A stretch of DNA of 64,000 bases from Geobacteraceae bacterium (GTDB lineage Bacteria > Desulfobacterota > Desulfuromonadia > Geobacterales > Pseudopelobacteraceae): the NCBI GenBank assembly GCA_025355965.1, contig JANXYR010000014.1, forward strand, positions 1 through 64,000. Direction: 5' to 3'. A program made the position numbers and the translations under genes. Positions 16,073-40,384 of the stretch are shown here, in pieces. Within the stretch, counting starts at the first letter, position 1; every line of letters begins with the position of its first letter. The notes under the pieces were generated by a model. It saw nothing but the letters and a program-made list of their open reading frames with translations. It searched no databases and had not been told where the DNA came from.

Positions 16073-17302
16073 TCAGTCCTTTGTATGGCACTTGTTACAG
16101 AGGCCGCGCTGGGCAGCTGCATAGCGGTTTACCGGTCTATCATACAGGGCCCATTTGGTTTCAGCAGATGTTCTTCCTTGGGCATACTCGGGGGGGGAGC
16201 CATTGTCGGTGCCAGGATACTTGCCGTTAAACACTATGAAATCAGTATCCATATTCCAGCGGGCCATACTGTTCCACCCTGATGCATGAGCCCTGTGGCA
16301 GGTAAGGCACATGACGTTTGAACCTTGTTCTGGTCCCTTGGTGTAACTGCCGTTATTCTGGGCATGCTGAGTGAGAAGAGCAAAATTATCGGTTCCCTCC
16401 TCAAAGGGGATCAGTGATGTGTATGCGGTATCCGCCCATCCATTTATATTTCCGGACTTCACATATGCGTTGTAGTTTGAGATAGTCTCCCGCCCGCAAT
16501 TAGCACATTTACCGGATGGGTGTATACGTCCTACACAACCGGAAACATGGCAGTTTGCGCACCATTCCGACATTCCTGCTCCATAAGCTACCCGCGTGTC
16601 AGTCATACCTTCTGCCCTGTTATAGTCGCGTGGTGAACTGACAACAGGAGGATCGGCAGTAAAAACCATACCCGGCACAGAACTCGTTTTATACCCTTTA
16701 CCGCCGAGCATTCGGTATGCACCTCCAGCAGTGGTGCCTTTTGATATTTTTCCATGCGGGTCATGGCAACTGATACAGGACAATTCATTGCTGGGATAGC
16801 GTCCATTAGAAGATGTTCTCATGGTGTTGCTAGGCACATACCCGAAATCGATAGCGACAATATTGTGGCCGTGCCGTTCACCTGGGCTGGACCCGGATTC
16901 TTTGGACGATTTCCAGGAGTAACTTTTCTTCAGCCAACCAAAATCACCGCCAGGAGTCAATTGTGAGGGGGGGAGGCCCGATCGTAGATCCATCGTATTG
17001 GTCGAGACATAATGGCCCACTGGATTACGTGTACCTTGTGGCGCCTCATGACAGAGGAGACAGGTAGAACTTGCGTCTGTACCTTTTAATGCGGGACCTT
17101 TTCCCACATGACACTCGCTACACTCCCTTGTACTGCCTGTATGAAATTTCTTAATGCCGGTAGCGCCCGTAGCATTTTTACCCTTGTGGCACTCAGTGCA
17201 TTCGGTACCAATCTTCCCAAAAGCTTCCACCAAAGAGCTATGAAAAAAAATGACAGGGAATTGCAACAATAATACCCAGATTATCCAATAACTGACCACC
17301 AT
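16073..17302 (-). CDS. OmcS-family multiheme cytochrome (7 CXXCH), divergent
   Basis: The 409-residue protein shares the OmcS C-terminus (RGLCNKCHTKD) and the internal HDPHGK, YNRAEGMTDTRVAYGAGMSEWCANCH and CLTCHRAHASGW blocks. Hemes are CTECH, CSECH, CLLCH, CISCH, CANCH, CLTCH and CNKCH, one more than OmcS. A further CANCG (GKCANCGRE) has lost its histidine. The N-terminus has an extra CXXCH pair in place of the HSGGVAECEGCH start of OmcS. The start is ATG 17302 with GAGG seven bases upstream and a hydrophobic leader. It may be a filament-forming or filament-docking cytochrome. Filament formation is not shown. Confidence 0.85.
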   Translation of the reverse strand: MVVSYWIIWVLLLQFPVIFFHSSLVEAFGKIGTECTECHKGKNATGATGIKKFHTGSTRECSECHVGKGPALKGTDASSTCLLCHEAPQGTRNPVGHYVSTNTMDLRSGLPPSQLTPGGDFGWLKKSYSWKSSKESGSSPGERHGHNIVAIDFGYVPSNTMRTSSNGRYPSNELSCISCHDPHGKISKGTTAGGAYRMLGGKGYKTSSVPGMVFTADPPVVSSPRDYNRAEGMTDTRVAYGAGMSEWCANCHVSGCVGRIHPSGKCANCGRETISNYNAYVKSGNINGWADTAYTSLIPFEEGTDNFALLTQHAQNNGSYTKGPEQGSNVMCLTCHRAHASGWNSMARWNMDTDFIVFNGKYPGTDNGSPPEYAQGRTSAETKWALYDRPVNRYAAAQRGLCNKCHTKD

Positions 17303-17372
17303 ACAGGATCCTCAAAATGATTTAGGTTTTCTGTAGCCGACAAAATAAATCAATAATTAAATATCATAGCTC

Positions 17373-17401
17373 TTGACTGTTTTCCAGATAATCGTAATAG
17401 T
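17373..17401 (+). promoter_or_regulatory. Candidate sigma-70 promoter
   Basis: TTGACT (17373-17378) and AATAGT (17396-17401) are 17 bp apart, 36 bp upstream of the HAMP-protein start at 17437. The -10 box is a modest match. Confidence 0.4.
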
Positions 17402-17436
17402 ATCATAAAATATCTTTTGCAAGGGATACTGAAATC

Positions 17437-18021
17437 ATGAGCCGCGCTATCGGATTAACAACACAAAAAAATTACCGATTTCTTCTCTATGCGTACTCTT
17501 TAGTGATTGTTTTACTTGGCGCTTCATTCGCCGGGCTGGGAGTGATATGGTCGCTGCCGGGCAACCTTGGCGAAGGATATCACAACGTCCAAGCGATGCT
17601 ACGGGGAATTCAGCAGATGCTCTTCTTTAGAATCACCCTGTTCTATTCGATAGCGATCCTCATCATCGTAGTTGCGATGGTAGTGCTGCACCTTTTGTAT
17701 TCTCACCGGATCGCTGGACCGGCCTACCGTATCGGACAGGAAGCAGCCAGAATAGCCCGGGGAAATCTGGCAGGAATCATAAAATTTCGTAAACATGATA
17801 ATCTGATGGACATGGCGGAATCCATGAATGATGTTGCGTCACAGTACCGTGAACATATCGGGGCTGTTCTGGAGCATCTTGCCTTTATTGAGGAACAGTC
17901 ACAAAAGATGAGTGTCCTTGTTCAGGAGGAGAGCGATGAAGCAACACTCAAACAGGCTGCAGAAGAAATAACCGGGAAAAGCAATGCCATTGCCGACTGC
18001 CTTGCTGAGATAAGGACCTGA
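17437..18021 (+). CDS. Two-TM HAMP-domain membrane protein, no output domain
   Basis: The 194-residue protein has TM1 (about 14-36), a short periplasmic loop, TM2 (about 64-90) and a HAMP domain that opens with HRIAGPAYRIGQEAARIARGNL. A coiled-coil tail follows (residues 125-190). It has neither a kinase nor an MCP signalling domain. It is followed by a second protein of the same layout, then the response regulator and two kinases. It may be a signal relay or co-sensor for that system. The start has AAGGGA upstream. Confidence 0.75.
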   Translation: MSRAIGLTTQKNYRFLLYAYSLVIVLLGASFAGLGVIWSLPGNLGEGYHNVQAMLRGIQQMLFFRITLFYSIAILIIVVAMVVLHLLYSHRIAGPAYRIGQEAARIARGNLAGIIKFRKHDNLMDMAESMNDVASQYREHIGAVLEHLAFIEEQSQKMSVLVQEESDEATLKQAAEEITGKSNAIADCLAEIRT

Positions 18022-18099
18022 ACAGAGAGGATTCTTTGTTGATAACCTTACAGTGTGCATTAAGTATAGTGATCGCAAGATCTGAGCGGAGACAACAAA

Positions 18100-18675
18100 A
18101 TGTTTTTTAGAAAAATCTACTTTATCAATAAAAGATTCCAGACACGCTTCATACTGAAATTCGTATTGGCTGTAATGTGCTGGGCAGTTGCAACCGTCTG
18201 GGTGTATTCCTCTCTGGTGGAGAAAAAGCTGGATGCCCTCCGCTATTCATCGCATGTCGACATAAAAACAACAGGTGACCTGCTCCTGCCGATCACACTT
18301 GGAACTCATCTGATTTCATTTCTGCTATTTGCCGCCCTTCTTGCTTACACCATGCGCTCTGTTATGAAGAAGCTCTCTCCGCCGCTCTATTCTATCAAAA
18401 AGGATCTAGCACGTATCGCCTCCGGCGATCTTACCAGCGAAGTAAGCCTCTGCAAAGGTGAAGAATTCCAGGAATTGACTAGTGAACTGGAACTGATGAG
18501 ACGAGGCCTCAGGGAGAACTTTGTGTTGATTAAAGATCGGCAGCTGGCACTTTCTTCTGCCATGTCCCATATCGACAATGCGATGAGTGAGGGGAGGCTT
18601 TCCATGACTCATGTTGAGACGCTTCAATCCGAGACTGCCCGATTGAAGGAATCTGTCCACCTGTTCCAATGTTGA
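18100..18675 (+). CDS. Second HAMP-type membrane protein without output domain
   Basis: This 191-residue protein has TM1 (about 19-41), a short loop, TM2 (about 61-84), then a HAMP-like segment LSPPLYSIKKDLARIASGDL and a helical tail. It resembles its upstream neighbour in layout but not in detailed sequence. The gene is 78 bp after that neighbour and 93 bp before the response regulator, so all may be co-regulated. No enzymatic domain is seen. Confidence 0.7.
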   Translation: MFFRKIYFINKRFQTRFILKFVLAVMCWAVATVWVYSSLVEKKLDALRYSSHVDIKTTGDLLLPITLGTHLISFLLFAALLAYTMRSVMKKLSPPLYSIKKDLARIASGDLTSEVSLCKGEEFQELTSELELMRRGLRENFVLIKDRQLALSSAMSHIDNAMSEGRLSMTHVETLQSETARLKESVHLFQC

Positions 18676-18768
18676 TAAGATTGCTTAACCAGCCTGTCAT
18701 TTTTCACCTTAACAGTCGCTTGAGAAATACTACTTTTCCTGACCAATAAACTAGGGTACAATCCGATC

Positions 18769-19440
18769 ATGCGAATTTTGATCATAGAGGATGAAGTTAA
18801 AGCGGCCGAGTACCTGCGCAAAGGATTTTCGGAAACCGGGTTTGTCTCAGACGTTGCCAATAATGGTGAAGACGGACTGCATCTGGCATTGACCGGCGAT
18901 TACGACCTTATCATTCTTGACGTGGGACTTCCTGAGCGATCAGGGTGGTCCGTAATCTCGGAACTGCGCCGTAAAGAAAAAGAGATACCGGTACTCTTTC
19001 TGACGGCCAGGGATGCTGTGGAAGACCGGATCAAGGGCCTGGAGCTAGGAGCCGACGACTATCTTGTCAAACCGTTCGTTTTTTCTGAACTTGTTGCCCG
19101 GGTGAGGACAATTCTACGCCGCGGACCTTTAAAGCAGCCGGATGTTTTTACGGTAGGTGATCTTGTTATCGATCTGGTGCGGCACAGGGCTATGCGTGCC
19201 AACCAGCGTCTTGACCTCACTCCGAAAGAATTCTCGCTGCTTTCGCTTCTCGCGCGGAGGACCGGAGAGGTTGTCTCGCGTACACTTATAGCCGAACAGG
19301 TCTGGGACATGAACTTCGATAGTGACACCAATGTAGTAGACGTTGCTGTGCGCAGACTAAGGGCAAAGGTTGACGACCCGCATGAAGCCAAACTTATACA
19401 TACATTAAGGGGGGTAGGCTATGTCCTCGAAGAGCGCTGA
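18769..19440 (+). CDS. OmpR-family response regulator (CusR/IrlR-like)
   Basis: The 223-residue regulator has an N-terminal receiver domain with acidic pocket IIEDE, phosphoacceptor Asp in [14 protein letters not shown] (residue 51), T in FLTARD and Lys in DDYLVKPF. The C-terminal winged helix (about 125-221) includes [20 protein letters not shown] and [11 protein letters not shown]. This subgroup often answers to metals or periplasmic stress with a CusS-like kinase. The kinase gene overlaps its stop by 20 bp. GTAA-based direct repeats upstream of the omcS-like gene and the second kinase gene are its likely targets. That is inference from site geometry. Confidence 0.92.
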
Positions 19441-20890
19441 ACAGGCGCCTCATTCAGAGCCTCGTCGCCGGTGGTCGATCACCCAACGTCTTGTTGTCAC
19501 CTACACCCTTTCCGCAGTTGCCATGCTTGCTATTACCGCAATCTTTCTTAACTGGACTCTCCATAGCTCCCTCCACAAAGCAGAACAGGACTATATCGAC
19601 GACCGTATACGCGTATACCGAGGCATTATCGAACACAGCCCTGAGTTTCTATTCTTTATCATGCAAGATATTGAATGGCAGGGATCATTCGTAAAATATC
19701 CCCAATATTATGCAAGACTCTTGAATGATCAGTGCCACATCATGATCGAAACAGCACACATGAATAAACTGATTCCAGTCGAGAGCTTTCCGGATGCATG
19801 CGTAACCAAAGAAACTTTAAAAGGACATCCGAAATCGGAGAAAAATTTCGTTTACCGGGGTGAAAACGGCAGGTCATACCTTTTAGAAACGTACTGGACC
19901 AAAACGGTACAGCCATCACAAAACATAGCTATCCAGATAGCGATCGATATAACATCACAGGAAAACATCATTCAGACTAACAACCGGCAGATGATCGGGA
20001 TTATTTTGGCCGGAATATTGTTTGCGGTTCTTTTCAGCGTTGTTGTTGCTCGCCGGGTTCTCCGTCCGCTCAGTGAATTGGCGGATACCGCCAAGCAGAT
20101 AAGCATGGACAAGATCAGCATGCGGGCCACCGATCCTGAGAGTTGGCCGGTGGAACTGCAGACCCTTGCAATCGCCTTCAACGAAATGTTGGGCCGCCTG
20201 GAGAATTCGTTCATCTGTCTATTTCACAGTGCAGCCAACCTGGCTCATGCTTTGCGGACGCCCATCAACATTCTTATGGGTGAAGCTGAAGTTGCTCTCT
20301 CCCAGGAGAGAAGCCCGGATGAATATCGCAAGGTTCTTGAATCAAGTATGGAAGAACATATGCGTCTTTCACGCCTTATCGAGGCGGTCTTTTTTCTGTC
20401 GAGGGCGGAAAATCCGTCTGCTGCGATCGAACGTACAATGTTCGACCCATTAGAAGAGGTTGAGAAGGTTTTTAGCTTTTATGAGGCTCTGGCCGCGGAT
20501 AAGAAGGCTGAACTTACCTGCCATGGCAATGGATTGGTGAGCGGTGACCGGATTTTTGTTCGCAGAGTCATAAGCAATCTGGTTTCAAATGCGCTCTATT
20601 ATTCCGCTCATGGCGTAAAGATAGACATCACCGTCAGGAAGTTGGAAGATAATTCCATCGAATTAATCGTAAGTGACACTGGATTCGGTATCGACGAAAA
20701 AAGCCTGAGCCGTATTTTTGAACGATTTTTCCGCGAAGAGACCAGCAATGTCTGCAATCCCGAGGGATCCGGGCTGGGGCTTTCTATCGTCAAATGCATC
20801 ATGGATCTTCACAAAGGCACAGTTACCATACAGAGCGTTCTCGGCAAGGGCACAACCATATCCTGCGTTTTCCCACCAGGTCCTGACTGA
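19421..20890 (+). CDS. CusS-like sensor histidine kinase with altered H-box
   Basis: The 489-residue membrane kinase has TM1 (about 25-48), a periplasmic sensor (about 49-188), TM2 (about 190-211), HAMP, HisKA and HATPase (N-box [13 protein letters not shown]-box [19 protein letters not shown]). The phosphoacceptor box is [11 protein letters not shown]: His276 is present, but the next residue is Ala277 instead of the Glu/Asp needed for catalysis in most HisKA kinases. The downstream paralogue keeps HELRTP. It overlaps the regulator gene by 20 bp. Kinase activity may be reduced, so it may act mainly as a sensor partner or phosphate acceptor. Confidence 0.88.
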
Positions 20891-20934
20891 CTGGACATGC
20901 ATTGCCTGGCATTACAGTTACACGTGCCGGCATA

Positions 20935-20949
20935 GTAACAAGTTAGTAA
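20935..20949 (+). promoter_or_regulatory. GTAA direct-repeat site upstream of the second kinase
   Basis: GTAA at 20935 and GTAA at 20946 are exactly 11 bp apart, the same period as in the omcS-like upstream array. This suggests binding by the adjacent OmpR-family regulator, 58 bp before the kinase start at 21007. Two half-sites alone are weak evidence. Confidence 0.35.
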
Positions 20950-21006
20950 TGAACACTATGAACTGGCATCTCTAATGGAATGCGAATAACAGGAAGGGTT
21001 CAATTC

Positions 21007-22479
21007 ATGTCATCAGAAGACAGCGAATATTTCGACCAGTGTGGCGTTGTTAAAACATGTCGATTATCACTCACAATGCGGCTGGTGCTTGCCTACGCAC
21101 TTTCCGCCATTACCCTGCTCCTCTTCACAAGCGTCTTCCTCCACTCAACCGTCAATAATGTTATGGAAAAAGCCGAAAAAAATTATATTGACGACAGGTA
21201 TCACGTATTCAGAGCCGTTATTGAAACACAGCCGGACTTTGCCGACGTCATCAAGCAAGTTATAGAATGGGAAGGCGTCTACGCCACATTCCCTGAATAC
21301 TACGCCCGCATTCAAAGCAGGAATTCCGGCATCCTTGTCGAAACCCTGAGCATGGATGAATTAATACCAACTGATAAGTTTCCTACCACATTTAAATCTG
21401 CAATTAAGGAAGACCCTGAAAATTATATTTTATTTAAGGGTAAGAATGGCCGGTCATATCTTCTGAAGTCTTTCTGGGCTGATACGTTAGCCCCTTCTCA
21501 ACGCATTGAAATCCTGATAGCAAAGGATGTCACCGCAGAAACAGATCTTATTGAGAAGAAACACCAGATTATTATCTCAATACTCATCGTCTTAATATTA
21601 TTTGCTGTTCTCTGCAGTTTCGTAGTCGCACGAAAGGTCCTTATGCCGCTCGGTGAATTGGCTAAGGTTGCCAACTTAATAACCCTCGACAAGATCGGCT
21701 TAAGGATTAAAAATCCAACATGTTGGCCTATAGAACTGCGGTCCTCGGCAATAGCATTTAACAGCATGCTGGATAGGCTTAAAGATTCATTTAAACAAAT
21801 TTCCGAGTACACAGCCAATCTTGCGCATGAATTGCGAACACCTGTCAACAACCTTATGGGTGAAACGGAGATTGTTCTTTCCAGGGAGAGAACGCCGGAA
21901 GAATACCGTATGGTACTTGAATCCGGGCACGAAGAGCATATGCGTCTCATGCGCATGATAGATGCGCTCCTTTTTATGGCACGTGGGGAGAATCCTGCAA
22001 ATCATATCGAGAATTCATTATTTGATCCCATGGATGAAATTACAAAGGTATGTTGCTTTAATGAGGCTTTGGCTGAGGAAAAACAGGCCCAAATCAGCTC
22101 AAAAGGAGAGGGTCTCATATACGGAGACCCGACTCTTTTCCGCAGAGTCATGAGCAATCTGGTAACAAACGCGCTTTATTATTCGTATCCAGGGGTAAAA
22201 ATAGTTATTTCAGTAATAAAGAGCAAGGACCACTACGTTGATGTAGTGGTTAGTGATACCGGCTATGGTATTTCGGAGGAGGACTTGAACCATGTTTTCG
22301 ATAGGTTTTACCGTGTCATGAGCAGTCGTTCCAGTTATCCCCAAGGTTCCGGCCTGGGGCTTTCGATCGTCAAATTCATCATGCAGTTGCACAAAGGAGA
22401 GGTCACAATACAGAGCAGACTCGGTCAGGGTACCACGGTAACCTTGCACTTTCCCGCTCCCCCCACCGGAGTCGTTTAA
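21007..22479 (+). CDS. CusS-like sensor histidine kinase, paralogue
   Basis: The 490-residue kinase starts at ATG 21007 with GGAAGG nine bases upstream (ATG 20980 also in frame but without a site). The architecture equals its upstream neighbour: TM1, a periplasmic domain of similar length, TM2, HAMP, HisKA with intact LAHELRTPVNNL (His274-Glu275), HATPase with NLVTNALYY and [12 protein letters not shown]. It is not preceded by its own regulator and probably phosphorylates the OmpR-type protein at 18769. The two kinases look like a tandem duplication, with this one keeping catalysis. Confidence 0.9.
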   Translation: MSSEDSEYFDQCGVVKTCRLSLTMRLVLAYALSAITLLLFTSVFLHSTVNNVMEKAEKNYIDDRYHVFRAVIETQPDFADVIKQVIEWEGVYATFPEYYARIQSRNSGILVETLSMDELIPTDKFPTTFKSAIKEDPENYILFKGKNGRSYLLKSFWADTLAPSQRIEILIAKDVTAETDLIEKKHQIIISILIVLILFAVLCSFVVARKVLMPLGELAKVANLITLDKIGLRIKNPTCWPIELRSSAIAFNSMLDRLKDSFKQISEYTANLAHELRTPVNNLMGETEIVLSRERTPEEYRMVLESGHEEHMRLMRMIDALLFMARGENPANHIENSLFDPMDEITKVCCFNEALAEEKQAQISSKGEGLIYGDPTLFRRVMSNLVTNALYYSYPGVKIVISVIKSKDHYVDVVVSDTGYGISEEDLNHVFDRFYRVMSSRSSYPQGSGLGLSIVKFIMQLHKGEVTIQSRLGQGTTVTLHFPAPPTGVV

Positions 22480-22530
22480 TAGTACGTCCTAATCCGCCAC
22501 CTTTGTAAATAGTGCTGTTTTTTAAACCCG

Positions 22531-22557
22531 ATCCCCCTTTTAAAAAGGGGGATTTTT
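22531..22557. terminator. Rho-independent terminator
   Basis: ATCCCCCTTT and its complement AAAGGGGGAT form a GC-rich stem with a tiny loop at 22531-22553, followed by five T bases. It ends the two-component operon and separates it from the omcS-like gene. Confidence 0.85.
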
Positions 22558-22630
22558 AGTATTAACTTTGTAACCTGCTAAACAGAACCTACCCTGCATA
22601 TCCCAAACGATCAATCCCGTACCTTACCAA

Positions 22631-22907: not shown

Positions 22908-24218
22908 ATGAGAAAGAGTACTAGTGTAGTTCTCGCAGCAGTATCCGCGCTTCTGATCAGCGCACCGGCATTTGCGTTCCACTCCGGCGGCGTCGCCGAG
23001 TGCGAAGGTTGTCACACGATGCATAACTCGGAATCTGGCGCAGCAGTTGCCACCGGCCTCCCCCAGTACCAAGCCGGCCCGTATCTCCTCAAGGCTAATG
23101 ACGCGTCCGGCGCCTGCCTGAACTGCCACAACTCTCCTGACACTGCAGCTTCAAGCTACCACATCTCTACCGACGCTTCCAAGCTCGGCCCCGGTCTTGC
23201 TCCTGTTGAAGCCACTCCTGGCGGCGACTTTGCCTGGCTGAAGAAAACCTACGCCTTCATGACCCGTGGCGCTGCTGCCACTGAAGACGGCGACCGTCAC
23301 GGCCACAACATCATTGCTTCCGATTACGGCTACACCGCTGACAAGACCTTTACCACCGCTCCTGGTGGTACTTATCCTGCGGCTAACCTGGCCTGTTCAA
23401 GTTGTCACGATCCACACGGCAAATACCGTCGTTTTGCTGACGGCACCCAGGCCACTACCGGTCTGCCGATCTTTAACTCAGGTTCTTACAACAACAGCGC
23501 CAGTCCTATCGCAGGCGTAGCCGCAGTTGGTGTTTACCGTATCCTGGGCGGCGTTGGTTATCAGCCAAAATCCCTCACCGGTTCTTATGCTTTTACCAGC
23601 AACTCTCCTGATGCCGTTGCTCCTTCAACATACAACCGCCTTGAGACTACCGGCCAGACCCACGTCGCTTACGGTCAGGGTATGTCTGAGTACTGTGCCA
23701 ACTGCCACACCAAGATGCTCGACAACAGCTTCACCTCCGGCATGAAGGGCCTTGTTCACCCGGCCGGCAACAACGCCAAGCTGACAGCTCCAATCATCGC
23801 AAACTACAACAGCTATGTAACGTCCGGCATCATGACCAACAGCGACATGACCAAAGCATACAGCTCACTGGTTCCTTTCGAGCTCGGCACCGGCGACTAC
23901 ACCAAATTGAAGCCGCTTGCTATCAATACCGATACAGTTGACCAGTCAGCAAGCACCACCAGTAACGTATCCTGCCTCTCCTGCCACCGAGCTCACGCTT
24001 CAGGCTTTGAGAGCATGACACGCTACAACCTGGTCAACGAGTTCATGACTATCGCAGACGCTACCGGTGCAGCTACATATGACGCCAGTACAACAGAAGG
24101 CAAGATCAACCACGGCAAGAACGTTGCCGAGCAGACCGCAGCATATTACGGTCGCGCTGCAACCGCCTTCGGTCCAAATGCTCGTGACCTTTGCAACAAG
24201 TGCCACGCTAAAGACTAG
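22908..24218 (+). CDS. omcS: OmcS-like hexaheme nanowire cytochrome
   Basis: The 436-residue protein follows the OmcS sequence from end to end. It has a signal peptide to PAFA, then FHSGGVAECEGCHTMHNS, CLNCH, CSSCHDPHGKYRRF, YRILGGVGYQPKSL, GMSEYCANCH, CLSCHRAHASGF, and the C-terminus DLCNKCHAKD. The six CXXCH motifs match the six hemes of OmcS, which polymerizes into extracellular conducting filaments. The gene has its own upstream regulatory array and a strong hairpin after its stop, and AAGGAG lies eight bases before ATG. It is probably the best expressed of the OmcS relatives here; filament formation is inferred from homology. Confidence 0.95.
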   Translation: MRKSTSVVLAAVSALLISAPAFAFHSGGVAECEGCHTMHNSESGAAVATGLPQYQAGPYLLKANDASGACLNCHNSPDTAASSYHISTDASKLGPGLAPVEATPGGDFAWLKKTYAFMTRGAAATEDGDRHGHNIIASDYGYTADKTFTTAPGGTYPAANLACSSCHDPHGKYRRFADGTQATTGLPIFNSGSYNNSASPIAGVAAVGVYRILGGVGYQPKSLTGSYAFTSNSPDAVAPSTYNRLETTGQTHVAYGQGMSEYCANCHTKMLDNSFTSGMKGLVHPAGNNAKLTAPIIANYNSYVTSGIMTNSDMTKAYSSLVPFELGTGDYTKLKPLAINTDTVDQSASTTSNVSCLSCHRAHASGFESMTRYNLVNEFMTIADATGAATYDASTTEGKINHGKNVAEQTAAYYGRAATAFGPNARDLCNKCHAKD

Positions 24219-26864: not shown

Positions 26865-26939
26865 TGTCATGAAAATGAGCCGGAATGCACATAGAGCAGC
26901 TAATTTTTGGCAAGGCTGGTTCAATTGCGGGAGAATCCC

Positions 26940-30635: not shown

Positions 30636-30679
30636 GTGGTGAGAGTGCAAAAGAATTGATCCATGAAGGAGAAACAATA

Positions 30680-31276: not shown

Positions 31277-32537
31277 CCTTCTTTCGGGCCTCATAGTCTA
31301 CGGGCTGTTTTGCTGCGCCGCTGTGGCTGAAAGTGCTCTACCGGGAGATGAAAGACGTATTGTCGTTTTTCCGATAGAAAACCTGAGCGGTGCGCCCGCT
31401 CCGCTCAAAGAGCTTGATGCTGAGCTTGCCGTCTTGTTGAAGAGGACGGGGGTACGCATAGTCGATACCGCTACGATTGAAAGTTTTATTAACAAACATC
31501 AAGTTCGCTATCTAGGAGGCATTGATGAACATATTGCAGGGCAGTTGAACGCTGAAACAGGCGCCGAATCGGTGCTGATTACATCATTGGAGTTGTATAA
31601 TGATGTTGATCCACCGAAGTTTTCGCTCATATCGCGGCTTGTTTCATTGAACGACATTCCGGAAATTGTCTGGATGAAGAGCGTAGGGATTGCCGGCGAT
31701 GACGCCCCCGGCATCCTCGGGCTGGGAATGATCAATGACATAAAAGAGCTAAGAGGGAAGGGGCTTGAATCAATTGCAAAATCGCTTGTGCACTACTCCA
31801 AAAACGCGCCAACACTGAAAAAACGGCTTATCACCAGGGAAAGGGAAGAGTATTCCTTCCGCCTTGATGGTCTTAGCAAAGAAATCAGATCAGAAAAAGA
31901 GAGGCTTGCTTCTGAATCAAAGTCTAATAGCGATCTGATTATTGAGGAAAGACTATCTGCAACCGAGGATAAGTTGAACATTATGAACGATAAAGATAGT
32001 CTCTTCATATCGCGCTACGATCCTGTAGGCTGGTACAGCTCAAGTGGAATACTTGCGAACCAGGATCGCACCATTGCCATCATACCGTTCTTTAACCGAA
32101 GTACGAGGAAACATGCCGCAGAACTTCAGGTGCTCCATTTGGCAATGCAGCTTGTAGAGAAGCGCGTTTTCCGGGTTCTTGAACTTGGAGTTATTCGTGA
32201 TAGAATGCTTAACATGCACGTTATCATGAGCAGTGGCGTTTCACTCCCCATTGTTGACCTTATATCCATTTCTCTTGGGTCAGACCTGCTGTTGAATGGA
32301 GTGGTTTTCGATTATCTGGATACAGTCGGTTACGGATCGAATCCGAAAGTAGATTTTTCGATGCAGATTTTCAACCGTGAAGATAAAAAAATTCTGTGGA
32401 GTTCCCACAGCAACAATCAAGGTGATGACGGAGTTTATTTTTTCGACTCTGGCCGTATCACCACAGCCGCCGCCCTTACCGACAAAATGTGCCGCGCCTT
32501 CGTACAAAGGCTGGTAGAGAATGCCGGCAGAAACTAA
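31248..32537 (+). CDS. CsgG-like exported protein, tandem domains
   Basis: The 429-residue product starts at ATG 31248 with GGAG nine bases upstream, overlapping the previous gene. After a signal peptide there is a CsgG-like domain (RRIVVFPIENLSGAPAPLKE; residues about 35-170), then a long charged coiled coil (about 185-245). A second CsgG-like domain follows (DRTIAIIPFFNRSTRKHAAE onward). It has no lipobox cysteine at the signal cleavage site. It could oligomerize with the preceding lipoprotein; a channel role is inference from family. Confidence 0.72.
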   Translation: MLSSTSFLNSLLSGLIVYGLFCCAAVAESALPGDERRIVVFPIENLSGAPAPLKELDAELAVLLKRTGVRIVDTATIESFINKHQVRYLGGIDEHIAGQLNAETGAESVLITSLELYNDVDPPKFSLISRLVSLNDIPEIVWMKSVGIAGDDAPGILGLGMINDIKELRGKGLESIAKSLVHYSKNAPTLKKRLITREREEYSFRLDGLSKEIRSEKERLASESKSNSDLIIEERLSATEDKLNIMNDKDSLFISRYDPVGWYSSSGILANQDRTIAIIPFFNRSTRKHAAELQVLHLAMQLVEKRVFRVLELGVIRDRMLNMHVIMSSGVSLPIVDLISISLGSDLLLNGVVFDYLDTVGYGSNPKVDFSMQIFNREDKKILWSSHSNNQGDDGVYFFDSGRITTAAALTDKMCRAFVQRLVENAGRN

Positions 32538-32574
32538 AATTGATTCATCACAACTACCGAGAAAGAGGGTTATC

Positions 32575-34350
32575 ATGAAATTGAGAATGCTAGTCACACT
32601 TACTTTTGCTGCCATTATCAGCACCGTCGCCGTTGCAATGGGGGCAACGGAACCCCTGCCAACTCCGACCGGGCAAACTACTGCTGTTGTACCTGATCCT
32701 CAAGATCCTTCAAAACCGGTTCAAGTGGCGAAAGGTTCCAAAGCAGATGAAGTAACCATACGCATGAACGCGCCGATCTTTTCGCCACTTTTCGCCAAGG
32801 TGCCGCTGGCAATAGTAAACGACGAGGCGATCACCATTGAAGATTTGAAAAAATCAGTGGGCACGATTCATGAGGGGATGGCCGAAGGGAAAACGGCACC
32901 GAGGACAAATTTTCCGGTTCTTTTAAAGCGGCTTGTCAACTCCCTTCTGATCATACAGGAAGCGCGCGTCATGGAACTGGACAAACAGGAAGAGATTAAA
33001 TCTTCCATAGAGGATTTCTCTAACAAGCATCTTCGTGAGTTGCTTCTGAAGGAACAGGTAAAAGATGTCAAGGCTGATGCAAAAGAAGTGGAAAAAATCT
33101 ATCAGGAGCGCACCGCTGAATGGCGGCTGAAATCGTTGATAGTCGATAAACTTGAAGATGCACAAAAAATTGAGGCCGCTCTTAAAGCCGGTAAAAAATT
33201 CGATGACCTGTATGATAAGAGCATAAAGGACGGCGTTGCCAAGGAGGGAGGGAAGTCGGACATATTCCTGACGCGTGATGTCATTGCTCCACCTATGATG
33301 GCTGTACTAACAAAGATGAAGATTAGCGAAATCAGCAAGGTAACACCTCTGGAAAAAGGCTATTTATTTTATCGTTTGGAAGAAAAACGCTTAAAAGTTA
33401 ATGAGGCCGTAAAGGAACAGGTACGGCAGGAGCTGGACGCCAAGGCGCGCATTGCTGCACTGGAGGCTTTTCAGGAATCGCTCATCAAAAAGTATGTGAC
33501 AAAAAAGAAACTGTTTGACAAGTTCGATTTCGAGAATAAGAAGGTCAAGTTTGAAACCTTCCTCAAGGACAAGCGCGTATTAGCAGACGTTAAAGGAGAG
33601 AAGACGATTACTGTGTCCGACATGGCAGAGGCAATTGCCCAAAAGTTTTACCACGGTGTGGAACGTGCCGCAGAGGGTAAAAAAATCAACAAGGAAAAAA
33701 AGGCTATTCTGAACGAACTTCTGGGCAATATTGTCTTCAACAAGGAGGCCAAGGTTAGAAAGATCAACGAATCGGACGAATACCGCAACAAGGTGCGTTC
33801 CTATTCCAACTCACTTTTGTTCGGTACCTTTGTCACCAAGGTGATCCGGTCGGAAATCACAGTGTCAAAGGATGAACTTAAGGCTTACCACAAGTTACAC
33901 GCCGGAGATTATTCCAGCATTGAGACCTACAAACTGGACGCCATCGCCTTCGATTCTCCGCAGAAAGCAGAAGAAGCGGTCGAAAAGCTGCGCAAAGGAG
34001 CGGAATTCAAGTGGTACAAGGCCAATGCTGATGGCAGGGTAAGTATCGGCAAGGCATATGAAAATATCTTCACCGGTGATACTATCGCAAAACCAAACCT
34101 GCCGGAACCGCTTCAACAAGCCCTTGCCGGCTCAGTCAGTGGCGATTTCAGGGTATTTATCGATGGCGGTCACGGTTACGTCATCTCTGTTGTTGAGCTT
34201 GCTCCCGGAAGGATCTTGAATTATGAGGAAGTGGAAGATGCCATCAAGGAGGCAGTGTTCTACGAAAAACTCAATAAAGGCGTGGAAACTTGGGGAGACA
34301 AGCTCAAGAGCACTTCAGACGTCAAAATCTACGCTGATTTCGGACAATAG
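32575..34350 (+). CDS. SurA/PpiC-like foldase of 591 residues
   Basis: The start is ATG 32575 with GAGGG upstream. A signal peptide precedes a SurA-N-like helical chaperone domain (about 90-200) and a PpiC parvulin domain (about 175-290; WRLKSLIVDKLEDAQKI, GKKFDDL, KISEISKVTPLEKGYLFYRL). Then comes a second SurA-like helical region and a second parvulin-like domain (about 440-560; AIAFDSPQKAEEAVEKL). Highly charged Lys/Glu helices join them. It sits immediately before a 26-heme and a 16-heme cytochrome, likely clients for folding or heme delivery. Client identity is inferred. Confidence 0.8.
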   Translation: MKLRMLVTLTFAAIISTVAVAMGATEPLPTPTGQTTAVVPDPQDPSKPVQVAKGSKADEVTIRMNAPIFSPLFAKVPLAIVNDEAITIEDLKKSVGTIHEGMAEGKTAPRTNFPVLLKRLVNSLLIIQEARVMELDKQEEIKSSIEDFSNKHLRELLLKEQVKDVKADAKEVEKIYQERTAEWRLKSLIVDKLEDAQKIEAALKAGKKFDDLYDKSIKDGVAKEGGKSDIFLTRDVIAPPMMAVLTKMKISEISKVTPLEKGYLFYRLEEKRLKVNEAVKEQVRQELDAKARIAALEAFQESLIKKYVTKKKLFDKFDFENKKVKFETFLKDKRVLADVKGEKTITVSDMAEAIAQKFYHGVERAAEGKKINKEKKAILNELLGNIVFNKEAKVRKINESDEYRNKVRSYSNSLLFGTFVTKVIRSEITVSKDELKAYHKLHAGDYSSIETYKLDAIAFDSPQKAEEAVEKLRKGAEFKWYKANADGRVSIGKAYENIFTGDTIAKPNLPEPLQQALAGSVSGDFRVFIDGGHGYVISVVELAPGRILNYEEVEDAIKEAVFYEKLNKGVETWGDKLKSTSDVKIYADFGQ

Positions 34351-34358
34351 GAGACGCC

Positions 34359-36335
34359 ATGATCATGTCGAAAAATAAGCAAATCTGGGCTGTGACGGTA
34401 ATCATGCTTCTTCTGTGTATGGGCTTTCTGCCGTGGGTTGTCACTGACAGTTATTGTGCAACCAAAAAATTCGTTTCCAAGGAATGCACCGACTGTCACA
34501 CTAAATTTGTGGACAAGTATTTCTCCATGAAATACCTGCACACAGACGTTAAAGAGAAAAAATGCGAAAATTGTCATGTCCGTCATGGCAGGATTCCGAA
34601 ACTTCTGCTCAAGAAAGAAGGAAACCAGATCTGCCTCGACTGCCATTCCAAGGACAAAATCGGTCTTTCCAAGCCCTATGTCCATACACCGGTCAAGTCA
34701 GGTAAATGCAGCCAGTGTCATAACTCCCACGGTTCACAGTTCAAGGGGTTGCAGCTGCACGAAGGTAAAGCGGCCTGCTATGAATGCCACAAGAAGGAAC
34801 TATTTGAGAAAAAGGTTGTGCATCAGGCTCTTCTCAAGGATGGCTGTAAGGCTTGCCACAGTGCGCACAGTTCGAATGAGAAATACCTCCTGACCAAGCC
34901 TGAACCGGCCCTTTGTCTGGAATGTCACGACAAGGGCGGCAGCGCGTTTAAAAAGGCTCATGCCAACTATCCGGTGGAAGGGAAAAGCTGTTCATCATGT
35001 CATAATCCGCACACATCTGACCAGCCCAAGCTGCTTCGAAACAGTCTGCACGGTCCTGTGGCGGCGCTTAAATGTTCTATGTGCCATGAAGCCCCGAATG
35101 CACAGCAACCCTTTGCTGTCACCAGGAAGGGCGCGGCCCTCTGCCTTGAATGTCACGACATGAAGACCCTGAAAGGCGTAGCAACCAATGAACACGCCCC
35201 ATTCAAGGAAGGTAATTGCCTCGGCTGTCATAATCCTCATGCATCAGAGTCCGTAAAACTGCTCATCAGGGAAGACAACAAGCTCTGTTTTGGATGCCAC
35301 AAGGAAAAAGAGATGCTGGTTGCGTTCAAGCATGCACCGATGAGTGCCGGCAAAGGATGTATCTCGTGTCACAAACCACATGCCTCCATGTTCAAGGGGC
35401 TTATAGACAAAAAGGGGAGCGATTTATGCTCCGAATGCCATGCGAAGACCATGGATGCTCTTAAAAACAAGACTGTACATGATCCGTTCAAGGGGGGCGA
35501 ATGCACTACCTGCCACAATCCGCACGGGTCTAACTTTATTGCAATGACCAAAGATCGGGGTGACAAGCTCTGTTATTCATGCCATTCCGATTCAGAAGCG
35601 AAATTTATGAAGTCATCCACACATAAACCGGTACTAAACGGTGATTGTGTCTCCTGTCACCATGGCCACAGCTCCACGGAAAAGAAGCTGCTGAAAGCCG
35701 CCGCCCCGCAACTCTGCGCTAAATGTCATAACGACATGATGAAAATTGAGTCAGGCGGCTCAAACCATGAGCCATTTAAAAGCGGACAATGTCTGACCTG
35801 CCATGATTCCCATGGCAGCTCCGTAGCCGGCATGCTTAACAAACCACAGGGCCAGCTGTGCGGATCCTGCCATGAACCATACAAGGGTCTTAAAGAGTCA
35901 ATGTCGAAGCATGTTCCGTTCATCGAGGGGAGCTGTTCTAAATGCCACAACCCACACAAGTCCAAACTGAAAACCCTGATGCCGGCCCAAGGCAACGATC
36001 TCTGCTTCAACTGTCACAAGGATATCAAAGAGAAGCTTGCCAAGGAAAAACCTCATAACCCGGCGAAGCAGGATTGTCTCAATTGCCACAAACCGCATTT
36101 TGCCAAGGATAAAAAACTGCTGCCGACTCCGGTGACCAACGTATGTGCACAGTGCCACGATTCATCCAAGGCACCATTCGAAAAGGCTCATCTTTCAATT
36201 CAGGTTTCTGTCATGACCTGCATGAATTGTCATGATCCACATGCCTCAAAGGATCCGAAGTTTTTCAAGAGCTCGGTCCATGCACCCTTTGCGGCCCGCA
36301 CGTGCGAAGAGTGTCATATTGTCGCCAAACCGTGA
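34359..36335 (+). CDS. 26-heme c-type cytochrome
   Basis: The 658-residue exported protein contains 26 CXXCH motifs, from CTDCH near residue 43 to CEECH near the C-terminus, spaced about every 20-25 residues. They come as the doubled pattern CXXCH...CXXCHxPH of the Geobacter multiheme repeat (e.g. CLGCHNPHASES, CISCHKPHASMF). Motif pairs and linkers are similar, so the protein probably grew by internal repeat. It begins 9 bp after the foldase stop. Such proteins act as long periplasmic or outer-surface electron wires. The start is ATG 34359; the leader is hydrophobic to about residue 33. Confidence 0.9.
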   Translation: MIMSKNKQIWAVTVIMLLLCMGFLPWVVTDSYCATKKFVSKECTDCHTKFVDKYFSMKYLHTDVKEKKCENCHVRHGRIPKLLLKKEGNQICLDCHSKDKIGLSKPYVHTPVKSGKCSQCHNSHGSQFKGLQLHEGKAACYECHKKELFEKKVVHQALLKDGCKACHSAHSSNEKYLLTKPEPALCLECHDKGGSAFKKAHANYPVEGKSCSSCHNPHTSDQPKLLRNSLHGPVAALKCSMCHEAPNAQQPFAVTRKGAALCLECHDMKTLKGVATNEHAPFKEGNCLGCHNPHASESVKLLIREDNKLCFGCHKEKEMLVAFKHAPMSAGKGCISCHKPHASMFKGLIDKKGSDLCSECHAKTMDALKNKTVHDPFKGGECTTCHNPHGSNFIAMTKDRGDKLCYSCHSDSEAKFMKSSTHKPVLNGDCVSCHHGHSSTEKKLLKAAAPQLCAKCHNDMMKIESGGSNHEPFKSGQCLTCHDSHGSSVAGMLNKPQGQLCGSCHEPYKGLKESMSKHVPFIEGSCSKCHNPHKSKLKTLMPAQGNDLCFNCHKDIKEKLAKEKPHNPAKQDCLNCHKPHFAKDKKLLPTPVTNVCAQCHDSSKAPFEKAHLSIQVSVMTCMNCHDPHASKDPKFFKSSVHAPFAARTCEECHIVAKP

Positions 36336-36441
36336 TTTAATGCAGGAGAGTCTTGCAGACGCGTTTAGCATGAAAACATGCCGCTCCTACGTCAGACCGA
36401 ATTGATATATCAAGTTACTGAAGTGATAAGGAGATAGATAC

Positions 36442-37716
36442 ATGAGAAAACGGAGTTTCTCGTTACTGTTGGCAGGGATTATAATAGTCGCTTGGGCGCA
36501 GTGCCTGTTCGCTGCCACCGACCAGCAGTTCAAGCTCAAGCCTGGTGCGCGCGGTAATATGTGCATGAAATGCCATAACTCCTTTCAGGAAAAAATGGCG
36601 CGGAAGTTTGTGCATACCCCGCTGAAGAAAAATGATTGTACTGGGTGCCACAATGCACACACATCAAATCATGGCAAGATGCTGTCCTCTGATTCGAAGT
36701 CAGTCTGTTCTGTCTGCCACCCGCCGATGGTTTCAGCAAAGGCGAAAAGTGTTCACAAGGTTGTGGCAGATGGTAACTGCATGAAGTGCCACGATCCGCA
36801 TGCCGCTGCAAACAAGGATAATCTGGTCATGGCTGGGAAGCAACTCTGCTTCTCCTGTCACAAGGAACTTGGGGAAAAACTGGCCAAGGTTAAGGTGCGC
36901 CACTCTCCGGTTGAAAAGGATTGTCTTATCTGCCACCAGCCACATTCCTCGGATACCGGGCTATTTCTGCTCAAAGATAATATTACGCAGCTTTGCTTAA
37001 GTTGTCACAAGGTTGACAAGCCAATTTTCATAAAAAAACACATGGGGTATCCGGTTGCCGGGTCCCGCTGCACCGGCTGTCACGATCCGCACGGGTCCGA
37101 CGCCTCGGGACTGCTCCTTAAAAACGTCCATTCACCTGTTTCCAAACGCATGTGCAACCAGTGCCACGAGGAAACTACTTCACCAACTCCGCTTAAGACA
37201 AAGAAAGAGGGGATGACGCTTTGTCGCGGTTGCCACAACGATATGTTCAACAAAACATTTGAAAAGAACCGGATGCATTGGCCGGTTGTAGCAAAGGAAG
37301 GGTGTCTTGGCTGTCACAACCCCCATGCCTCGATGGACAAAGGCTTGTTGCGCGAACCTGTGGCAAAGTTATGCGGCAGATGCCACGTCGACACCATGAA
37401 GCGCCAGGCTAAAAACGTCTCGAAACATGAGCCGATAGTTGATGGTCGTTGTACGGAATGCCACGACCCCCACTCATCCAATAACTTGTTCCTGACCAAA
37501 AAATCGGCCGATTTTGATCTCTGCACGACATGCCACGACTGGAGTCAGCATTCGACCCACCCGATCGGCGAAAAGACCCGTGACCCGCGCAACAAGAACT
37601 TGTCAGTAGGTTGCGGAAGCTGCCACCGAGCCCACGGGACCGAGTTCAAGAAGTTGCTTTATTATCCTACAACCACAGAGATGTGTATCCAGTGCCATGA
37701 ACAGTTAAAGAGGTGA
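36442..37716 (+). CDS. 16-heme c-type cytochrome
   Basis: The 424-residue exported protein has 16 CXXCH motifs, first CMKCH after a signal peptide ending near LFAA, last CIQCH five residues from the C-terminus. It is of the same doubled-CXXCH type as the 26-heme neighbour (e.g. CTGCHNAHTSNH, CLGCHNPHASMD). Distal histidines are regularly placed (FVHTPLKK, KHMGYPV). It is 106 bp after the 26-heme gene and runs directly into an NHL protein gene (3-bp gap), which then runs into an OmcS-like gene. A joint role in extracellular electron transfer is inferred. Confidence 0.9.
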   Translation: MRKRSFSLLLAGIIIVAWAQCLFAATDQQFKLKPGARGNMCMKCHNSFQEKMARKFVHTPLKKNDCTGCHNAHTSNHGKMLSSDSKSVCSVCHPPMVSAKAKSVHKVVADGNCMKCHDPHAAANKDNLVMAGKQLCFSCHKELGEKLAKVKVRHSPVEKDCLICHQPHSSDTGLFLLKDNITQLCLSCHKVDKPIFIKKHMGYPVAGSRCTGCHDPHGSDASGLLLKNVHSPVSKRMCNQCHEETTSPTPLKTKKEGMTLCRGCHNDMFNKTFEKNRMHWPVVAKEGCLGCHNPHASMDKGLLREPVAKLCGRCHVDTMKRQAKNVSKHEPIVDGRCTECHDPHSSNNLFLTKKSADFDLCTTCHDWSQHSTHPIGEKTRDPRNKNLSVGCGSCHRAHGTEFKKLLYYPTTTEMCIQCHEQLKR

Positions 37717-37719
37717 TAA

Positions 37720-38619
37720 ATGACAAGAACCATAAAAACGCTCATCTGTATTCTGCCTATCATCTGCGCTCTCCCCGCTTACAGCGCTGATGTCGCAAAA
37801 TTCAAGCCGCTGACGGAACTCTATCTTGATGCAAACAAGATACCGTTAAAAAATCCCGAGGGTGTCGCCTGCAGCAAAACTGCGGTACTGGTAGCAGATA
37901 CCGGTAATGGGCGATTAGTCAGTTATGCCAGGAACGACAATGAATTGAAAAACGGTGTAGAGATAAAGCTGGAGCAGGTTCCCTATCCAATCAGGCTAAA
38001 GGCCACAGTCCAGGGCAAGGTGCTTGCTCTGGACGGCAAGAGCCGCAAAATTGCGATCCTGGCGGCCGACGGGAGTTTTGTCAGTTATCTGGACTATAAG
38101 AACGTCCCGCTACCCATCGATATTGCCCCTCGCAGTATGACCGTGGACGCTCGGGACAACATATATGTAGTCGATACTCTGGGTGCGAGATTGATTGTTA
38201 TGGATCAGACCGGCACATTTCTGCGCCAGATTCCGTTTCCGAAAGAAACCGGGTTCATCTCCGATGTGGCTGTTGATCAGCGAGGGGTGGTTTATATTTT
38301 GGACAGCTTGATGGGGCAGGTGTACAAGTCCGCGCCTGACAGCAAGCTGTTTCAGCAGTTTTCATCGAAACTGCAGGCACCTCTCTACTTTGCTGTTTCC
38401 TTAGAAGTTGATCCTCAGGGAAGGTTATACCTGCTGGACCAGAACGATAGTGCTGTAATTCTGCTCGGTCCTGACGGTTCGTTCCAGGGGCGTTATCTCT
38501 CCTATGGCTGGAGGGCCGGACAAATCAACTACCCGAGTCAGGCGTGTCTCACCGAAAACGGTATTATGATCATCGCTGACCGCAACAACAGCCGTATCCA
38601 ATTGTTCAAGGTTCAGTAA
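37720..38619 (+). CDS. NHL-repeat exported propeller
   Basis: The 299-residue protein has a signal peptide ending in AYSA and a propeller fold of NHL/YVTN-like blades such as LKNPEGVACSKTAVLVADTG, SMTVDARDNIYVVDTLGARL and EVDPQGRLYLLDQNDSAV. NHL proteins commonly flank omcS and related genes in Geobacter and may help filament assembly or docking. It is packed between the 16-heme and an OmcS-like gene with 3- and 23-bp gaps, so it is one operon with them. No enzymatic site is visible. Confidence 0.85.
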   Translation: MTRTIKTLICILPIICALPAYSADVAKFKPLTELYLDANKIPLKNPEGVACSKTAVLVADTGNGRLVSYARNDNELKNGVEIKLEQVPYPIRLKATVQGKVLALDGKSRKIAILAADGSFVSYLDYKNVPLPIDIAPRSMTVDARDNIYVVDTLGARLIVMDQTGTFLRQIPFPKETGFISDVAVDQRGVVYILDSLMGQVYKSAPDSKLFQQFSSKLQAPLYFAVSLEVDPQGRLYLLDQNDSAVILLGPDGSFQGRYLSYGWRAGQINYPSQACLTENGIMIIADRNNSRIQLFKVQ

Positions 38620-38642
38620 CCTTCAAAGGGATATGAGAGAAT

Positions 38643-39962
38643 ATGATCAAAACCCTCACCGTAATCTTCGTTCTGTTGCTATTTGTGTCGGCTGTATCAT
38701 GCTTCGGGGCCGAGCAGTTCCCGAACGGTTTCCATAACGGTGGCATCGCGCCGTGTGAAGGTTGCCATTCCAAAACACCTAAAGTGGCTGAGTCGGGATC
38801 GGCCCTTACATTGGCTAAAGACAGTCAATCCTCCGATGCAGGCCGGGGTATGTTCAACGGTCAGGATCCTGGTTCAACCTGTCTTGTCTGCCATACCGCG
38901 CCAAAAGGGCAGAAACAGCCGTCAGGATATTTTGTAGCTACCAGTAACGACGACCTTGCTGCTGGCCTGCCGCCCGGTCAGATGACGCCTGGCGGAGATT
39001 TCGGCTGGCTCAGGAAGAGTTATATCTGGGCAACCCAAGAAGCCGGTAAGTTGAAAGACGGGCAAAGCCAAGGGGAACACCACGGGCACAACGTAATTGC
39101 TTCACAGTTTGGTTATAACCCTGATTACAGCAATGCAAAGGCTCCGGGCGGCATATTTCCGTCCGACAAGTTAACCTGTACCAGTTGTCACGATCCGCAC
39201 GGCAACTATCGCAGACTCGCTGATGGTTCCTACAGCACAAGCAATGCAATTCCGGTAATTGCCTCCGGTTCTTATAAAAGCAGCCCCTTGCCCGATGCTA
39301 CTCATGCTATTGGTTCTTACAGATTGCTGGCCGGCAAGGGATACTCACCAGCGTCATCAGGTCGTTCCGTAATATTTACTTCCGACCCTCCGACAGCGGT
39401 CGCACCGGACAAATATAACAGGGCTGAAACAAGGCAAGGCAATACCCGGGTAGCTTACGGCAGCGATATGTCTGAATGGTGTCAAAACTGTCATGAACCG
39501 CACAAACACGCAACCGGCAATGCTGCTAAAATCACATCGGGAATTGTCAAACAATACAACTCCTATATTGCCTCTGGGGATATAAACGGTTCAAGATCGT
39601 CTTCATACTCTTCACTGGTACCTTTTGAGGTTGGAACAAAGGATTACGCGGAGCTGAAGAGACTCGCCGGCAACGGCGGCGAAGGTGGTGACATGAGCGG
39701 ACCGTTATCCGGTGAAAATGTCATGTGTCTCACTTGTCACCGGGCTCATGCCGGAGGATGGGACTCAATCACCAGATGGAACACCAAGGCTGAGTTGATT
39801 GTATACGATGGCAAATATCCGGGCATAGACTCTGGGGCTCCAACGTTTATCGCCCAGGGTCGGACTTCTGCCGAGACAAGAAAGGCTTATTATGACCGCC
39901 CTGCCGATTCATTTGCGGTGTTTCAACGGGGATTGTGCAGCAAGTGTCATGCAAAGGATTGA
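38643..39962 (+). CDS. OmcS-family hexaheme cytochrome, third copy
   Basis: The 439-residue protein has a signal peptide to CFGA, then FHNGGIAPCEGCHSKTPK and six CXXCH motifs (CEGCH, CLVCH, CTSCH, CQNCH, CLTCH, CSKCH). The C-terminus is FQRGLCSKCHAKD, as in OmcS. SCHDPHGNYRRLADG, YRLLAGKGYSPASSGR and MCLTCHRAHAGGWDS are family signatures. It follows an NHL gene by 23 bp and precedes a small lipoprotein and a Sel1 gene. The sequence is divergent from the copies at 22908 and 25539, so the paralogues probably do not replace one another. Confidence 0.93.
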   Translation: MIKTLTVIFVLLLFVSAVSCFGAEQFPNGFHNGGIAPCEGCHSKTPKVAESGSALTLAKDSQSSDAGRGMFNGQDPGSTCLVCHTAPKGQKQPSGYFVATSNDDLAAGLPPGQMTPGGDFGWLRKSYIWATQEAGKLKDGQSQGEHHGHNVIASQFGYNPDYSNAKAPGGIFPSDKLTCTSCHDPHGNYRRLADGSYSTSNAIPVIASGSYKSSPLPDATHAIGSYRLLAGKGYSPASSGRSVIFTSDPPTAVAPDKYNRAETRQGNTRVAYGSDMSEWCQNCHEPHKHATGNAAKITSGIVKQYNSYIASGDINGSRSSSYSSLVPFEVGTKDYAELKRLAGNGGEGGDMSGPLSGENVMCLTCHRAHAGGWDSITRWNTKAELIVYDGKYPGIDSGAPTFIAQGRTSAETRKAYYDRPADSFAVFQRGLCSKCHAKD

Positions 39963-40370: not shown

Positions 40371-40384
40371 CGAGGGGTCAAAAG

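What the first reader, a model, noticed from the sequence alone, without database searches (positions are those of the whole stretch)
16073..39962. Four OmcS-family cytochromes in 24 kb
Copies at 16073 (7 hemes), 22908, 25539 and 38643 (6 hemes each) share the block order and near-identical hallmark motifs but differ widely in linkers, and each has a different set of companions. The set may make distinct nanowires or mixed filaments.
Basis: partly seen in the sequence, partly recalled or inferred. Interest (0 to 1): 0.65.

Follow-up and report, generated by a model that had tools for sequence, protein, structure and literature searches.

The report
OmcS nanowire subunits lacking linker histidine
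A metal-breathing type of bacterium carries four relatives of the protein that builds electricity-conducting bacterial nanowires; two keep the amino acid thought to clip one subunit onto the next and two have lost it, so those two may end or anchor wires rather than extend them.

Summary
Confirmed: four OmcS-family genes (22908 +, 25539 +, 38643 +, 16073 -; 62, 52, 46, 45% identical to OmcS) surround an osc-type nanowire assembly block. They are not four equivalent wire subunits. OmcS has 12 heme ligands; one is given to the neighbour's heme 5 (literature; that it is His16 is recalled, and fits conservation). In 170 full-length family members (OmcS included) eleven histidines are invariant, while His16 is kept in 132 and lost in 38. 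Copies 22908 and 25539 keep it; 38643 and 16073 lost it, and 16073 has an extra N-terminal heme motif. The loss arose more than once (single origin rejected, AU p 2.4e-5, 43-row subset), is under purifying selection, and 21 of the 38 lie just beyond the block, against 0 of 57 copies at its head. It occurs in 29 of 38 genomes examined, usually once. Best reading: 22908 and 25539 can polymerise; 38643 and 16073 can accept but not donate the shared ligand, so they would be wire-end subunits, or else separate cytochromes. Function is untested. OmcS paralogs and the osc operon are known; the searches made showed no description of this ligand-loss class, but the main osc paper was not readable.

The parts
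22908..24218 (+). S1: OmcS-like hexaheme cytochrome, His16 kept (codon 39, 23022-23024); likely wire subunit
   Evidence: 61.8% identity to mature OmcS; phmmer 5.7e-153 to 6ef8; in one 12-row group with OmcS (SH-aLRT 99)
24407..25336 (+). CxxxxCH/CxxCH cytochrome (TIGR01904) between S1 and S2
   Evidence: similar gene in the same place in G207 and G216, and beside S copies in G226
25539..26864 (+). S2: OmcS-family hexaheme at the block head, position of GSU2501/oscC; His16 kept (codon 44, 25668-25670)
   Evidence: GSU2501 position from PMC12977616 section 6
26907..28340 (+). beta-propeller protein, first gene of the 8-gene block (OscD position, inferred from order)
   Evidence: Pfam YNCE/Lactonase; synteny
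28362..30635 (+). 757-aa probable outer-membrane beta barrel
   Evidence: no Pfam or NCBIfam hit; barrel nature is inferred from sequence and position; synteny
30656..31276 (+). LpoB/GNA1162-like lipoprotein
31200..32537 (+). 445-aa block protein, no Pfam family
32521..34350 (+). PpiC-type prolyl isomerase (OscH position, inferred from order)
   Evidence: Pfam Rotamase_2 6.1e-16
34359..36335 (+). 26-heme cytochrome (GSU2495/oscI position)
   Evidence: 26 CXXCH
36442..37716 (+). 16-heme cytochrome (GSU2494/oscJ position)
   Evidence: 16 CXXCH
37720..38619 (+). NHL beta-propeller, last gene of block
   Evidence: Pfam NHL
38643..39962 (+). S3: OmcS-family hexaheme without His16 (Thr45, 38775-38777), no His in the heme1-heme2 linker
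   Evidence: AF2 pLDDT 88, TM 0.85 to 6ef8
16073..17302 (-). S4: OmcS-family protein with seven CXXCH, without His16
   Evidence: AF2 pLDDT 77, TM 0.77 to 6ef8; orthologue in G216/L024 at 91%
17186..17200 (-). S4 extra N-terminal heme motif CTECH ('heme 0'), ahead of the canonical FH...CSECH heme 1 (17108-17146)
   Evidence: sequence; alignment A4 puts S4 F53/H54/C61/C64/H65 on the family's start motif and heme 1. The model is of low confidence here (residues 1-59 under pLDDT 50)
40008..40795 (+). small protein (120 aa) and repeat protein (142 aa, Sel1/TPR-like by eye), recurrent companions after the block
   Evidence: the 120-aa protein has no Pfam hit, the 142-aa one was not scanned
17437..22479 (+). 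two membrane proteins (HAMP-like by eye), response regulator and two tandem histidine kinases between S4 and S1
   Evidence: HisKA/HATPase_c shown for 20980-22479 only, the rest by eye; same set in G216

Best explanation
The locus encodes an OmcS-type nanowire system with two kinds of subunit. S1 and S2 keep all twelve heme ligands, including the one given to the neighbour (His16), so each can take part in head-to-tail polymerisation, alone or mixed (inferred). S3 and S4 keep the 11 own-chain ligands and the OmcS fold but lost exactly the donor histidine (shown by sequence). They should still be able to receive His16 from an S1/S2 subunit on heme 5, but cannot supply the ligand for the heme 5 of another subunit. 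They would therefore sit at one end of a wire, with heme 1 facing something that is not OmcS, such as the porin/26-heme conduit or a final acceptor; S4 adds one more heme motif on that same N-terminal side. Shown: the loss, its specificity, recurrence, retention under purifying selection, and frequent nearness to the assembly block. Inferred: the capping or anchoring role, the partner, and which end faces the cell.
For: Among 170 full-length members (169 ORFs plus OmcS) His 2, 13, 51, 110, 144, 147, 243, 257, 332, 335 and 404 are invariant; His16 is H in 132. Six of the eleven are CXXCH histidines, partly ensured by the six-motif cut; the other five are not. All 38 H-minus proteins have no His anywhere in the heme1-heme2 linker. 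PMC6584659 (passages): 11 of 12 ligands are own-chain, 1 (heme 505) from the neighbour. PMC7096707 (passages): heme 5's ligand comes from the adjacent monomer; [quoted passage not shown] Of columns at least 80% conserved in 70 H-plus rows, only position 16 and Leu37 fall under 15% in both H-minus clades. Repeated loss: 5 changes, at least 4 forced by supported branches (135 rows); one origin for the 25 core rows rejected, p-AU 2.4e-5 (43-row subset, quick tree). Position: block head 57 H-plus, 0 H-minus; within 8 kb past the 16-heme gene 21 H-minus, 10 H-plus. 29 of 38 genomes carry H-minus (24 once, 5 twice), 27 of the 29 with a full-length H-plus; 4 of 4 further named genomes likewise. Divergence of residues 1-62 over 323-407 is 1.45-1.51 in H-minus clades, 0.68-1.30 in six H-plus clades. 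dN/dS 0.106 (S3), 0.050 (S4).
Against: No structure of an interface, no expression or binding data. That His16 is the donor is recalled for the number and supported here only by conservation; no coordinates were seen. 17 of 38 H-minus genes, S4 among them, were not seen in the post-block place, and 10 post-block copies keep His16. The link of position and loss rests on few independent events: 4 independent pairs, 2.5 agreeing, 0 opposing, not significant. Two H-plus rows (L009, L031) fall in or beside the H-minus clades on unresolved forks. Two genomes (G189, G220) showed H-minus without a full H-plus; both are fragmented. Extra His columns in H-minus near OmcS 254-255 (53% against 4%), 60-61 (37% against 2%) and 201-202 (29% against 1%) could ligate heme 5 internally in part of them. 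The N-terminal regions of both models are of low confidence. G. sulfurreducens forms OmcS wires, and the text read names no post-block copy there.
Confidence: 0.42

Rival explanations
1. S3 and S4 are stand-alone cell-surface cytochromes (terminal reductases or docking cytochromes) that left the wire; heme 5 is five-coordinate and may bind substrate, or is ligated by another residue of the same chain.
For: Loss of the only exported ligand is what release from polymerisation predicts; extra His residues in many H-minus proteins; some H-minus genes lie with no block gene in the fetched stretch (L034, L038, L039, L140). PMC7096707 suggests that a five-coordinate terminal heme 5 could be catalytic (passages).
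Against: Relative to each clade's own mean, the heme 5/6 side stays about as constrained as in H-plus clades while residues 1-50 are relaxed; H-minus occurs with a full-length H-plus in 27 of 29 genomes; no replacement ligand common to all 38 was seen.
Confidence: 0.33
2. S3 and S4 polymerise through a different interface without a shared ligand, as OmcZ does.
For: OmcZ filaments have no intersubunit ligand (PMC9473688, passages); same fold as OmcS.
Against: The heme1-heme2 linker is shorter (median 23 against 32 residues, ranges 15-42 and 19-71) and, relative to each clade's mean, among the fastest-diverging segments of H-minus proteins.
Confidence: 0.12
3. One reading: four interchangeable OmcS copies making distinct or freely mixed nanowires.
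For: Same family and locus.
Against: Two of four lack the presumed intersubunit ligand.
Confidence: 0.08
4. S3 and S4 are decaying duplicates.
For: Donor ligand lost.
Against: dN/dS 0.106 and 0.050; 11 other ligands kept in 38 of 38 H-minus proteins; recurrent and in 29 of 38 genomes.
Confidence: 0.02

Closest known systems
OmcS of Geobacter sulfurreducens (PDB 6ef8/6nef)
   Same: Sequence family; six heme motifs and 12 ligands (S1, S2); fold and 11 of 12 ligands (S3, S4)
   Different: S3 and S4 lack the presumed donor His16; S4 has a seventh, N-terminal heme motif
OscC/GSU2501 and the osc (omcS companion) operon
   Same: S2 heads an 8-gene block that corresponds to the one reported downstream of GSU2501 (GSU2500-GSU2493; PMC12977616 section 6 read; osc names from a passage of PMC13194489)
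   Different: Further family members beyond the block (S3) and divergent upstream (S4), not mentioned for G. sulfurreducens in what I read
OmcT and OmcJ
   Same: OmcS paralogs of unknown function
OmcZ filaments
   Same: Multiheme wire without intersubunit heme ligand (passages)
   Different: Different fold (passages); S3/S4 have the OmcS fold

Membership tests
OmcS sequence family | Full-length homology to OmcS with six CXXCH in the same order | tested here: met
   all four; S1, S4 against PDB. S4 has one more motif, N-terminal
OmcS sequence family | OmcS fold | tested here: met
   Foldseek TM (query) 0.85 for S3, 0.77 for S4 to 6ef8, on predicted models; S1 and S2 not modelled
Self-polymerising OmcS-type nanowire subunit | 11 own-chain axial histidines | tested here: met
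   170 of 170 full-length members, the four copies included; 'axial' assigned from the count in PMC6584659 and conservation
Self-polymerising OmcS-type nanowire subunit | His16 donated to the neighbour's heme 5 | tested here: not met
   For S3 and S4: not met. For S1 and S2: met. The residue number is recalled; conservation supports it
Self-polymerising OmcS-type nanowire subunit | Observed filaments | not testable with these tools
   needs cryo-EM or proteomics
osc (omcS companion) cluster | OmcS-like gene followed by the 8-gene block including prolyl isomerase, 26-heme and further multiheme cytochromes | tested here: met
   compared with what PMC12977616 and PMC13194489 say of the genes, not with the G. 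sulfurreducens sequences

The most novel reading that the evidence does not exclude
Many Geobacterales and some other bacteria encode dedicated end subunits for OmcS wires: OmcS-fold cytochromes that accept but cannot donate the intersubunit heme ligand, evolved repeatedly, often beside the wire-assembly genes, and that start, stop or anchor the wire; the 7-heme form extends the heme chain toward its docking partner.
Probability: 0.4. Interest if true: 0.82.

Novelty: new variant of a known kind. Interest (0 to 1): 0.62.

Why it matters
[quoted passage not shown] A one-residue rule would separate probable wire-extending from non-extending OmcS paralogs; [quoted passage not shown] It also gives candidate genes for wire ends in named species, for example the post-block copy in Geomonas oryzae (L062), and warns that counting omcS-like genes may overstate nanowire potential.

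Tried and rejected
His63 was first taken as a second lost ligand; it is H in only 76 of 170 and so is not a family-wide ligand. A look for one replacement histidine shared by all H-minus proteins found none. A phylogeny-aware test of position against His16 loss had too few independent pairs. The AU test on 135 rows did not finish and was repeated on 43 rows: all 25 core H-minus plus 18 of the 70 core H-plus rows, chosen by me; the 3 H-minus rows outside the core were left out. Papers wanted but not held: PMC11845295, PMC6720112, PMC9357133. I did not find G. sulfurreducens itself among the loci (best identity to OmcS 72%), so OmcT, OscC and OmcJ were not compared. Rows dropped: of 184 distinct ORFs, 15 with fewer than six CXXCH were left out of the 170 (169 ORFs plus OmcS); among these 15, one has Ala at 335 and one Ile at 404, the rest H or gap at the eleven places. 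The tree used 135 of the 170 (near-identical and under-33%-identity rows left out). Sampling bias: the collecting query held S3 and S4 and ranked by S3, so 38 of 170 is no estimate of natural frequency.
Full report
Observation. I call them S1 (22908), S2 (25539), S3 (38643) and S4 (16073, minus strand). Identity to mature OmcS is 61.8, 51.7, 46.2 and 45.0%. Predicted models of S3 and S4 each match one solved chain at E <= 0.001, OmcS 6ef8.

Context. S2 heads, and S3 closes, a block of beta-propeller, probable barrel, LpoB-like lipoprotein, 445-aa protein, prolyl isomerase, 26-heme, 16-heme and NHL genes. PMC12977616 (section 6 read) describes GSU2501 followed by an eight-gene block GSU2500-GSU2493 linked to nanowire maturation and secretion, and names GSU2495 as a 26-heme protein (passage). 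The osc names come from passages of PMC13194489; the primary paper is not held. I compared descriptions, not the G. sulfurreducens sequences.

Key result. I gathered 184 distinct family ORFs from a capped genome-contig scan (80 of 100 confirmed places kept, 78 loci) and a search of 277 genomes of the class (51 with a match; at most six candidates scored per genome; stretches fetched for 38 of the 51). The query held S3 and S4, so proportions are biased toward their kind. In the 169 with six or more motifs plus OmcS (170), eleven OmcS histidines are invariant and His16 is H in 132. The six-motif cut partly ensures six of the eleven; His 2, 110, 147, 257 and 335 are not ensured by it. PMC6584659 states that 11 of the 12 ligands come from the same subunit and one, on heme 505, from a neighbour (passage). 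The number 16 for that residue is my recall. It fits the data: a CXXCHxxH spacing at heme 1 occurs in 130 of 132 H-plus proteins, and 20 of 21 remote rows have His16, whereas His 53, 63, 139 and 309 are in none of those remote rows; His247 is in 21 of 21 remote rows but in only 85 of 132 H-plus proteins. S3 and S4 belong to the 38 that lost it.

The loss is narrow. Of positions at least 80% conserved in 70 H-plus rows, His16 is absent from both main H-minus clades (18 and 7 rows) and Leu37 nearly so (6 and 14%); Tyr62 is reduced in both; the other listed ones are lost in one clade only. It is recurrent: minimum 5 changes, at least 4 forced, on 135 rows; on a 43-row subset with 3 changes, holding the 25 core H-minus rows together costs 103 log-likelihood units, p-AU 2.4e-5 (quick tree). 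Two H-plus rows, L009 and L031, sit in or beside the two clades on unresolved forks. It is not decay: dN/dS against the G216 orthologues is 0.080, 0.157, 0.106 and 0.050 for S1 to S4, with dS 0.61-1.04.

Distribution. Copies directly upstream of the block's first gene (same strand, within 3 kb) keep His16 in 57 of 57 full-length cases, one further case being a fragment. Copies within 8 kb past the 16-heme gene lack it in 21 of 31 (with another rule for copies that also head a block, gave 21 of 32). Thus 17 of 38 H-minus genes, S4 among them, were not seen there. Fisher p is 9.9e-13 (computed with 21 of 32) but ignores descent; with descent there are only 4 independent pairs, none opposing, not significant. 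H-minus genes occur in 29 of 38 genomes, once in 24 and twice in 5; 27 of 29 also have a full-length H-plus. The two exceptions are fragmented assemblies; a second search scoring all candidates gave no full H-plus there. Four more named genomes with H-minus all had H-plus. The 7-heme form was seen in this genome and in G216 only.

Mechanism. A subunit without His16 cannot supply the sixth ligand of another subunit's heme 5, but can receive it. This gives a one-sided subunit (inference). Consistent with it, residues 1-62 of H-minus proteins diverge more relative to residues 323-407 (1.45-1.51) than in six H-plus clades (0.68-1.30) (my segment borders, no significance test; the stretch includes the trait; two of the four H-minus figures are nested in a third, so two clades are independent). 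S4's seventh motif precedes the family's start motif F-H, i.e. on the side that would be exposed, but the model is of low confidence there. PMC7096707 notes that capping of the ends is unclear and that a terminal heme 5 would be five-coordinate (passages). The same facts fit a stand-alone cytochrome, the main rival; extra histidines in part of the H-minus proteins favour that rival.

Literature on novelty. Full-text searches, within open-licence PMC only (titles and abstract starts listed; passages read in several), and a word search inside PMC12977616 (no 'histidine', 'ligand' or 'H16') showed no description of this class. The main osc paper was not readable, so prior notice there cannot be excluded.

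Noticed in passing
12215-15940 +: A nine-CXXCH lipoprotein-like cytochrome, a 486-aa protein with one N-terminal CXXCH followed by a porin-like region (weak Porin_O_P, below cutoff), and a 133-aa monoheme protein form a group next to S4; same group in G216. The middle one recalls Cyc2-type fusions (recalled, not tested).
   Followed up: partly
19421-22479 +: Two similar histidine kinases in tandem behind one response regulator, between S4 and S1.
   Followed up: no
42616-43404 -: Six-CXXCH protein matching TIGR04257 nanowire_3heme in two stretches.
   Followed up: no
L058 and L063: The homologue of the 26-heme block cytochrome has 42 CXXCH in these remote clusters.
   Followed up: no
L043, L045, L067, L070, L080, L083: OmcS-type genes with much of the assembly block in records titled Acidobacteria, Fibrobacteria, Krumholzibacteriia and Zixiibacteriota.
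   Followed up: partly
L058, L066, L069, L071: Remote OmcS-family ORFs with seven CXXCH that keep His16; a seventh motif occurs outside the S4 type too.
   Followed up: no
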